Shown here one piece after another: positions 30,996 through 33,900 of a DNA stretch of 64,000 nt. How positions within the stretch are numbered: the first letter of the stretch is position 1; the number at the start of each line of letters is the position of its first letter. Source of the DNA: Tubulanus polymorphus (Eukaryota > Nemertea > Palaeonemertea > Tubulaniformes > Tubulanidae); the NCBI RefSeq assembly GCF_964204645.1, contig NC_134025.1, positions 248,001 through 312,000 of the forward strand, in the 5' to 3' direction. The translations under genes were made by a program, and so were the position numbers. Under the pieces are notes generated by a model. The model did no database searches. It was not told the DNA's origin and saw only the letters and a list, made by a program, of their open reading frames with translations.

Positions 30996-33900
30996 TCAAT
31001 GAGCAGCTCCTGCTCCTACTGATATTTCAGATAAATCTTCAACTGTTTCACTTTCTGTATCATCCTGTCGAGGCATTGTAACTGATATAGCTCTAGGTGC
31101 ACTGGGTCTCGAACCCTCATCATCAAACGTATACGTTCCTCTGAGTTTCATTTCGGGTTCTTTCTGTTCTGAACTTTGAGTTCCAAACGAATCGGAATAG
31201 CCAGTGCCCCCTAGTGTCCCGGTACGGAACACATCAGATTGACCAGTTGTACCCAATGTTTGTCCAGTTGCAGCCAGTGATAGATCGGCAGTACTCGTCG
31301 ATGGTTTATCCGTCTGTTCAGTGCTGTGTTTATCCGTCTGCTCTGTGCTGAGAGTCGTTGTCAGATATTTTCCAGATTGTAGTAAACTTTCTACGTTCAT
31401 TTGATCCGGCGTAAAAGATCTGCCTAATTCATTAATTGTACCAAACGCTCCTGAAATAAACATCAATACAAATACATTAATATTACGAGATAGAAACAGC
31501 ACCAATAGTAGTTACATAGTTCCACAGTTCAGACCCTATAGGGCGAACTCTTTTATCAGATCGGAGAATCCGTTTGCCTCCAATCGTTCTCTTTTATTGG
31601 TTACGTGACTTTTTGGAGTCTCCGAAACCTCCTTTCTGTCGAGGTGGTGTGATTCAGATTTTGTGTGGAGCCAACCCGAGATTTCGATGGTGACTTCGGA
31701 GGTCATAAAAGAGTACGCCCATAGAGTAAAACTAATTCATTTCCAATGAACTCCAGACAGAATTTAAACCGACATCCAGAACTGCGGAACTGGATCCTAC
31801 AATCGCTCGTACCACTATAAGTTTCTCTTAAAGCTGCTGGATCTGAATCACTGATTTTCTCGAGAGGTTTTGGCGATACTTGTATGATCCGTGTACCGGT
31901 AACCGATGGTTCGTCGAGGAGCTCCTGCTGCGCTGGCTCCACCTGGATCGGTTCCTGGAGTTTCTGCTCTCGTGACTTTATTACATTTGTAGATTTAAAC
32001 GCAGATTTTGCATCTGTAATGAAAACACAATACTTTCAATCTTGCTTGAGCTAAAGCTCTTACAATTATTTATGTGGGGGCAGGCACTGGGAGGTGAGGG
32101 TGTATATTTACCCAGGGTAGAGCAGGCACTGGGAGGTGAGGGTGTATATTTACCGGGTGTAGAGCAGGCACTGGGAGGTGAGGGTGTATATTTACCCAGG
32201 GTAGAGCAGGCACTGGGAGGTGAGGGTGTATATTTACCTGGTGTAGAGCAGGCACTGGGAGGTGAGGGTGTATATTTACCTGGAGTAGAGCAGGCACTGG
32301 GAGGTGAGGGTGTATATTTACCTGGAGTAGAGCAGGCACTGGGAGGTGAGGGTGTATATTTACCCAGGGTAGAGCAGGCACTGGGAGGTGAGGGTGTATA
32401 TTTACCCAGGGTAGAGCAGGCACTGGGAGGTGAGGGTGTATATTTACCTGGTGTAGAGCAGGCACTGGGAGGTGAGGGTGTATATTTACCGGGCGTAGAG
32501 CAGGCACTGGGAGGTGAGGGTGTATATTTACCTGGAGTAGAGCAGGCACTGGGAGGTGAGGGTGTATATTTACCTGGAGTAGAGCAGGCACTGTGAGGTA
32601 AGGGTGTATATTTACCGGGCGTAGAGCAGGCACTGGGAGGTGAGGGTGTATATTTACCTGGAGTAGAGCAGGCACTGGGAGGTGAGGGTGTATATTTACC
32701 CAGGGTAGAGCAGGCACTGGGAGGTGAGGGTGTATATTTACCGGGCGTAGAGCAGGCACTGGGAGGTGAGGGTGTATATTTACCCAGGGTAGAGCAGGCA
32801 CTGGGAGGTGAGGGTGTATATTTACCTGGAGTAGAGCAGGCACTGGGAGGTGAGGGTGTATATTTACCTGGCGTAGAGCAGGCACTGGGAGGTGAGGGTG
32901 TATATTTACCTGGTGTAGAGCAGGCACTGGGAGGTGAGGGTGTATATTTACCTGGCGTAGAGCAGGCACTGGGAGGTGAGGGTGTATATTTACCGGGCGT
33001 AGAGCAGGCACTGGGAGGTGAGGGTGTATATTTACCCAGGGTAGAGCAGGCACTGGGAGGTGAGGGTGTATATTTACCGGGCGTAGAGCAGGCACTGGGA
33101 GGTGAGGGTGTATATTTACCTGGAGTAGAGCAGGCACTGGGAGGTGAGGGTGTATATTTACCTGGAGTAGAGCAGGCACTGGGAGGTGAGGGTGTATATT
33201 TACCCAGGGTAGAGCAGGCACTGGGAGGTGAGGGTGTATATTTACCTGGCATAGAGCAGGCACTGGGAGGTGAGGGTGTGTATTTACCTGGTGTAGAGCA
33301 GGCACTGGGAGGTGAGGGTGTATATTTACCGGGCGTAGAGCAGGCACTGGGAGGTGAGGGTGTATATTTACCTGGTGTAGAGCAGGCACTGGGAGGTGAG
33401 GGTGTATATTTACCTGGCGTAGAGCAGGCACTGGGAGGTGAGGGTGTATATTTACCTGGAGTAGAGCAGGCACTGGGAGGTGAGGGTGTATATTTACCTG
33501 GCGTAGAGCAGGCACTGGGAGGTGAGGGTGTATATTTACCTGGTGTAGAGCAGGCACTGGGAGGCAAGTGAAGAATTCCTGGTGATATTTCACCCACTGA
33601 TTCACGTAATTCATCTAATCTCAAAGGTTCATCACTCATAGTTTTATGTTCCTTCAATCCTTTAAAATAAATCAACAAATAAATGATTATCGATACAAGA
33701 ACCGCCTTGAATTTTTCAATCTGTAAACAGTGGGTTTTAATCGATTCATCGTTAAAAAAGTTTCAAAAATAAGAGTTGATTTTGAGGAATAATGAATGAA
33801 CTGAACCTGTTGTATAAGATTGAGGAGGAATGTCTAATCTGCGTCTGACCGTGTCACCTCCGTATGAGTGTGCGAATGGAACACTTACATCACCTCCACT

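What the first reader, a model, noticed from the sequence alone, without database searches (positions are those of the whole stretch)
32081..33659. A ladder of about 35 in-frame alternative splice donors in TALPID3
Seen directly: coding exon 20 (from 33659) ends in a 42-bp unit whose donor CCAG|GTAAAT is copied about 35 times over the next 1.4 kb. First and last donors are exactly 34 x 42 bases apart. Every copy keeps GTAAAT, the frame is open throughout, and each donor has the phase (1) that fits the acceptor at 32013. Splicing from donor n would therefore add n copies of a 14-residue Pro/Ser/Cys unit, giving proteins from 1336 to about 1812 aa from one allele. Copy number would also vary between individuals. 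Inference: this is a length-tunable linker in a centriolar protein, made by a minisatellite that captured an exon-intron border. I know of no described equivalent of this size.
Basis: partly seen in the sequence, partly recalled or inferred. Interest (0 to 1): 0.92.

Follow-up and report, generated by a model that had tools for sequence, protein, structure and literature searches.

The report
Tandem repeat spanning a splice donor
A 42-base repeat has copied the end of one exon of a cilium gene, with its splice signal, 35 times; this is a known kind of repeat that also sits in other genes of this genome, where almost only the first signal gives a full protein, so a ladder of protein lengths is possible here but not the likeliest outcome.

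Summary
On the minus strand 35 GTAAAT donors lie exactly 42 bases apart (first intron base 33539 to 32111). All 35 have the phase of the acceptor at 32013 and none of the 35 joined products has a stop. The host is a TALPID3 gene.

The reading as a tuned length ladder is weak. The array fits a "mirage": a minisatellite spanning an exon-intron border, described in amphioxus, where two papers say regular splicing is undisturbed. Human IFI6 is a cited case where such a minisatellite supplies alternative donors.

Of 18 donor-bearing arrays examined in this genome, four others begin at an apparent coding exon end: a Myt1-like kinase, a SHPRH-like SNF2 protein, a dynein heavy chain, and a transporter-like ORF without Pfam support. 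In three only donor 1 gives an open product; in the dynein only donors 1 to 8 of 64 do. If those genes work, donor 1 dominates there.

Invariant GTAAAT, open frame and lack of indels need no selection to explain them. TALPID3 is the one of five where every donor is productive, so use of later donors would be tolerated. No RNA data exist here; a ladder is not excluded.

The parts
33540..33659 (-). TALPID3 coding exon (120 bases) whose last 25 bases are part of the first repeat unit
   Evidence: sequence; frame and joining; array edge. The exon itself has no Pfam match (protein 5)
32080..33564 (-). 42-base minisatellite, 35.4 copies, spanning the exon-intron border
   Evidence: TRF; unit listing
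33538..33539 (-). donor 1 (CAG|GTAAAT), proposed main donor
32110..32111 (-). donor 35 (TGG|GTAAAT), 98 bases before the next exon
32014..33539 (-). intron if donor 1 is used (1526 bases), made up almost wholly of the array
31830..32013 (-). next TALPID3 exon, part tested here (phase 1 acceptor at 32014|32013; its 3' end was not verified)
34502..37846 (-). upstream TALPID3 exons modelled here from open frames and splice consensus; joined translation matches Pfam TALPID3
   Evidence: PF15324 E 3.5e-17

Best explanation
This is a mirage minisatellite. A 42-base segment over the donor of a TALPID3 exon (25 bases of exon, 17 of intron) was duplicated in tandem, perhaps between short repeats (CCTCCCAGTGCCTG stands in the exon end and again at the far end of the array), then expanded and homogenised to 35 copies. 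Every copy carries the donor. Most transcripts use donor 1, which ends the shortest exon next to the upstream acceptor, and remove the array within a 1526-base intron. Because the unit is 14 codons long and open in the exon's phase, occasional use of donor 2 or 3 would add 14-residue Pro/Ser/Cys units without a frameshift, as in IFI6. Shown: array, phase, openness, host gene, sibling arrays. Inferred: the duplication route, dominance of donor 1, and any low-level use of later donors.
For: Array spans the border and 35 of 35 copies keep a donor. Four other arrays in the same genome also start 2 to 20 bases inside an apparent exon end: Myt1-like kinase 1 of 37 donors productive, SHPRH-like 1 of 19, transporter-like ORF 1 of 5, dynein heavy chain 8 of 64. 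Splicing donor 1 to the exon beyond the array gives one unbroken Pkinase match (E 4.5e-24) and one unbroken SNF2 match (E 5.1e-12), and in the dynein a DHC_N2 match beginning just after the junction (E 6.3e-18). The dynein unit is also open in frame, yet its array has stops and frameshifts, as intron sequence would. In amphioxus, mirages are reported not to interfere with regular splicing (passages). No frame-specific sign of coding constraint in the TALPID3 array.
Against: No transcript was seen; donor-1 dominance is inferred from other genes and other animals. TALPID3 is the only one of the five in which all donors are productive, without any stop or indel in 35 copies, which is also what a used ladder would show. 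IFI6 shows that later donors of such an array can be used. The last donor would leave a 98-base intron, close to two neighbouring introns of 91 bases, which could favour late donors. All donor types of the array pair with U1 within the range of the gene's other donors. The transporter-like host has no Pfam support.
Confidence: 0.7

Rival explanations
1. A true ladder: many of the 35 donors are used at appreciable levels, so one allele makes a series of TALPID3 proteins differing by 14-residue units, and allele length sets the range.
For: 35 of 35 donors in phase and without stops; donor types pair with U1 as well as the gene's other donors, -5.5 to -8.3 against -5.3 to -8.4 kcal/mol, and GTAAAT is used by 3 of 11 other modelled donors, one after TTG; IFI6 precedent; 7 of 11 distinct changes synonymous, p 0.012.
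Against: The synonymous excess is the same, 7 of 11, in an antisense frame and is 4 of 8 by column, p 0.14. Four sibling arrays with equal donors would be harmful if later donors were used freely. Amphioxus mirages are reported to splice regularly.
Confidence: 0.18
2. Intron definition: the donors nearest the acceptor are preferred, so most of the array is exon and the usual protein carries about 34 extra units.
For: Donor 35 leaves a 98-base intron, and two introns just upstream are 91 bases; the array is open throughout.
Against: Other introns of the gene are 209 to 1033 bases. In the siblings the last donors give stops or wrong phase. Donors 33 and 35 are TGG and donor 34 CCG, the weaker types.
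Confidence: 0.07
3. Assembly artefact: the real array is much shorter.
For: Long near-identical repeats are error-prone; no reads could be examined.
Against: The assembly has 77 contigs for 267.8 Mb and the unique flank is found at one place only. Ten unit variants are interspersed along the array. Long arrays are common here: 20.5% of the window is minisatellite.
Confidence: 0.04

Closest known systems
'Mirage' minisatellites of amphioxus (Adh3, troponin C, globins BflGb6 and BflGb9, PGBD5); PMC3087553 and PMC3902484, passages read
   Same: Minisatellite-like tandem duplication of an exon-intron boundary; many copies carry AG/GT signals
   Different: Here 35 copies, all in phase and open; the globin examples have few copies of 150-160 bases, Adh3 units are 10-72 bases. 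Regular splicing is reported there and untested here. The organism here was not identified
Human IFI6 (6-16) minisatellite, Turri et al. 1995; not held, seen as a citation and as a passage in PMC4526556
   Same: A minisatellite over an exon end gives several donors; two downstream units are used besides the first, making three mRNAs
   Different: Unit and gene differ (12-base unit, 26 copies: recalled, from no call). Only three donors are reported as used; here use is unknown
Intron gain or lengthening by tandem duplication of AGGT-bearing segments; PMC3443670 and PMC2812944, passages read
   Same: Tandem duplication of a segment with AG/GT makes new potential splice sites
   Different: Those describe new introns or changed boundaries; here, on my reading, an existing intron of about 98 bases grew by 34 units

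Membership tests
Mirage minisatellite | Tandem repeat spans an exon-intron boundary | tested here: met
   Array 32080-33564 starts 25 bases before donor 1
Mirage minisatellite | Copies carry AG/GT splice signals | tested here: met
   GTAAAT in 35 of 35; CAG before it in 20 of 35
Mirage minisatellite | Copy number unstable between haplotypes | not testable with these tools
   One haplotype held; one locus found
Mirage minisatellite | Regular splicing not disturbed | not testable with these tools
   No RNA; indirect support from four siblings
IFI6-type multi-donor minisatellite | Later donors in the same phase, giving open longer products | tested here: met
   35 of 35
IFI6-type multi-donor minisatellite | Later donors used in mRNA | not testable with these tools
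   No RNA data
TALPID3 gene | Pfam PF15324 match in collinear exons | tested here: met
   5 collinear matches, 4 over cut-off; joined exons E 3.5e-17. The array exon itself has no match
Selected coding repeat | Synonymous bias among unit variants, specific to the coding frame | tested here: not met
   7 of 11 in the real frame and also 7 of 11 in an antisense frame; 4 of 8 by column, p 0.14

The most novel reading that the evidence does not exclude
TALPID3 in this animal is made as a graded series of isoforms with up to 34 extra 14-residue Pro/Ser/Cys units, set by which of 35 near-identical donors the spliceosome picks, with allele repeat number setting the range. It would be the in-frame member of a recurrent set of mirages in a minisatellite-rich genome.
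Probability: 0.18. Interest if true: 0.8.

Novelty: new member of a known kind. Interest (0 to 1): 0.42.

Why it matters
Five apparent exons of one genome end in 5 to 64 tandem donors. That is a natural experiment on how the spliceosome chooses between nearly equal 5' splice sites, with number, spacing and frame varying between genes. TALPID3 is the array in which any choice would be tolerated, so it is the best place to read the raw preference. It also suggests that mirages recur in this genome and may feed intron lengthening or protein-length variation.

Tried and rejected
Coding constraint inside the array: an apparent synonymous excess (7 of 11) was dropped after an antisense frame gave the same 7 of 11 and the per-column count 4 of 8, p 0.14. 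Absence of stops: 6 of 126 possible single changes make a stop, so 11 random changes would avoid one with probability about 0.58 (my arithmetic). Absence of indels: TRF gives 0% indels also for the stop-laden kinase array and for 7 of the 20 other arrays listed with 5 or more copies in the window. RNA structure ordering the donors: 871 bases (32730-33600, about half the array) fold no better than shuffles, z +1.58. Genome-wide enrichment of donor-bearing arrays: not seen; AGGTAART triples 84+57 matches against 58+88 for the reversed pattern, CAGGTAART with wider gaps 1+25 against 1+26, AGGTGAGT 19+16 against 129+136.

Survey limits. I examined 18 donor-bearing arrays: TALPID3, the 11 fetched and the 6. 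One search listed about 100 of its 141 places, ending on C11, so arrays beyond were not seen, and one 17-base simple repeat on C1 was left out. I of 18 mirages; in 13 of 18 I found no supported exon end at the first donor. By open frame of 40 aa or more at the first donor 6 of 18 pass: the five plus L048 (60 aa, no Pfam match), which I dropped; L059 has a short possible frame (32 aa). The transporter-like host (L056) rests on open frames and my recall; Pfam gave nothing. 'Myt1-like', 'SHPRH-like' and 'axonemal' are recalled labels; Pfam supports protein kinase, SNF2 and dynein heavy chain. Control: of the arrays found with a reversed motif I fetched 7, and 0 of 7 had an open frame of 40 aa or more ending at a donor-like site in the first unit; those arrays were not chosen to hold donors and the scan was not run on the test arrays, so the control is weak. 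Its donor weights are recalled.

Organism: not identified. The 18S request failed three times; COX1 and molluscan haemocyanin gave no match, the latter uninformative by the tool's own control. No relatives of this genome are held, so other species could not be compared.

Literature searches. Read as passages only: PMC4526556, PMC3618361, PMC2572611, PMC3087553, PMC2812944, PMC2915984, PMC3902484, PMC3443670; the rest were seen as listings. In those listings I saw no title or abstract describing a donor ladder of this size or one in TALPID3; the library lacks most subscription papers.

Full report
What is there. The minus strand holds a 42-base tandem array at 32080-33564, 35.4 copies, 95% matches, 0% indels. 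Read along the gene, it starts 25 bases before the end of a coding exon (33659-33540) and ends 66 bases before the next acceptor. Each of 35 copies has GTAAAT, and 34 of 34 spacings are 42. The bases before the junction are CAG in 20 copies, TGG in 8, CCG in 7. Joining each donor to the exon at 32013 gives 35 of 35 products free of stops.

The gene. Pfam TALPID3 (PF15324) matches five exons in order on the minus strand, four over the cut-off. The joined exons from 37846 to 34502 match with E 3.5e-17 over profile positions 846-1127. The array exon lies two introns further on and has no Pfam match of its own. The gene model is mine, from open frames and splice consensus, without transcripts. Among 11 other donors modelled, GTAAAT occurs three times, after AAG (40345), TTG (37688) and GAG (35188). 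Their computed pairing with U1 runs from -5.3 to -8.4 kcal/mol; the array types have -8.3 (CAG), -6.5 (TGG) and -5.5 (CCG). So all array donors are plausible donors.

Is the array kept as coding sequence? I found no good sign. 34 of 42 columns do not vary, so invariance of GTAAAT says little: 14 of 42 six-base windows are invariant. 7 of 11 distinct changes are synonymous (p 0.012), but an antisense frame gives the same 7 of 11, and by column it is 4 of 8, p 0.14. Freedom from stops is expected of a young array with an open unit (about 0.58 by my arithmetic), and a sibling array with a stop in its unit is also indel-free by TRF. The test is small, so weak constraint is not excluded.

Siblings in the same genome. 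I searched the assembly (267.8 Mb, 77 contigs) for triples of donor motifs and examined 18 donor-bearing arrays including this one. Four others begin 2 to 20 bases before the end of an apparent coding exon. L049 (C11): protein kinase exon, 36-base unit, 37 donors, 1 productive. L053 (C8): SNF2 exon, 50-base unit, 19 donors, 1 productive. L056 (C1): 39-base unit, 5 donors, 1 productive; the host looks like a nucleoside transporter to my eye but has no Pfam match. L061 with L072 (C6): dynein heavy chain, 51-base unit, 64 donors, numbers 1 to 8 productive, then stops and frameshifts. For three of them, joining donor 1 to the exon beyond the array is supported: an unbroken Pkinase match (E 4.5e-24), an unbroken SNF2 match (E 5.1e-12), and a DHC_N2 match starting just after the junction (E 6.3e-18). 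If these genes work, donor 1 must be the main donor in spite of many near-equal competitors. In the dynein the unit too is open in frame, yet the array has decayed as intron sequence would. The other 13 of 18 arrays showed no supported exon end.

How it most likely works. A segment over the donor was duplicated, expanded and homogenised; such duplications can persist because the first copy stays next to its exon. The unit happens to be 14 codons and open in phase 1, so TALPID3 alone of the five tolerates any later donor. I expect donor 1 to dominate, with perhaps some use of donors 2 and 3 as in IFI6. Against this, the last donor would leave a 98-base intron, like two neighbours of 91 bases (one acceptor is corrected by two bases from the printed junction), so the opposite preference is possible. 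RNA folding gives no reason for either (z +1.58).

What is known. The IFI6 minisatellite is cited as providing alternative donors, with the shortest, 130-residue form predominant (passage; the 1995 paper is not held). Amphioxus mirages span exon-intron boundaries; the globin paper says Adh3 data and globin RT-PCR suggest no interference with regular splicing, while allowing that the copies could act as cryptic sites; the PGBD5 paper says the Adh and troponin C mirages do not generate aberrant mRNAs. The case is therefore a large, in-frame member of a described kind. What I did not see described in my searches is its size, its complete openness, and several such arrays with known hosts in one minisatellite-rich genome.

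Limits. There are no transcripts, no reads, no relatives of this genome and no species name. The survey is small and seeded by donor motifs: it shows that mirages recur, not how common they are. Donor-bearing arrays as such are not enriched over reversed-pattern controls.

Noticed in passing
58739-60466 (-): An uninterrupted 576-aa IRF2BP-like ORF (Pfam PF25457, PF25454, PF11261). It lies between TALPID3 matches at C1:322107-322316 and C1:289848-290102 on the same strand, so it may be nested in a TALPID3 intron.
   Followed up: partly
L049, L053, L056, L061 with L072: Four more donor-bearing arrays starting at apparent exon ends (kinase, SNF2, transporter-like, dynein heavy chain), with 37, 19, 5 and 64 donors.
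   Followed up: yes
window 1-64000: 20.5% of the window is tandem array with period 14 or more and 3 or more copies (31 merged arrays); several stand in TALPID3 introns.
   Followed up: partly
L050 1691-1957 and L051 1512-1933: The same 31-base CAGGTAAAT-bearing unit forms arrays at two places on C6 about 2.6 Mb apart, with similar flanks: perhaps a mobile or duplicated element.
   Followed up: no
22940-24139, 37387-37671; L054, L057, L063: Arrays built on a shared motif like GTGGAACTGGATCC recur across the window and other loci.
   Followed up: no
26742-29077: A 287-base, 8-copy tandem array with 70 to 78 aa open frames repeated on the minus strand.
   Followed up: no
L017 (C8:16258000-16262500): A distant array about 70% identical to the TALPID3 unit; fetched but not examined.
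   Followed up: no
unit of 32080-33564 (-): Each unit also holds an acceptor-like CCCTCACCTCCCAG; splicing from a donor to it would shift the frame (25 bases modulo 42), by reading.
   Followed up: no
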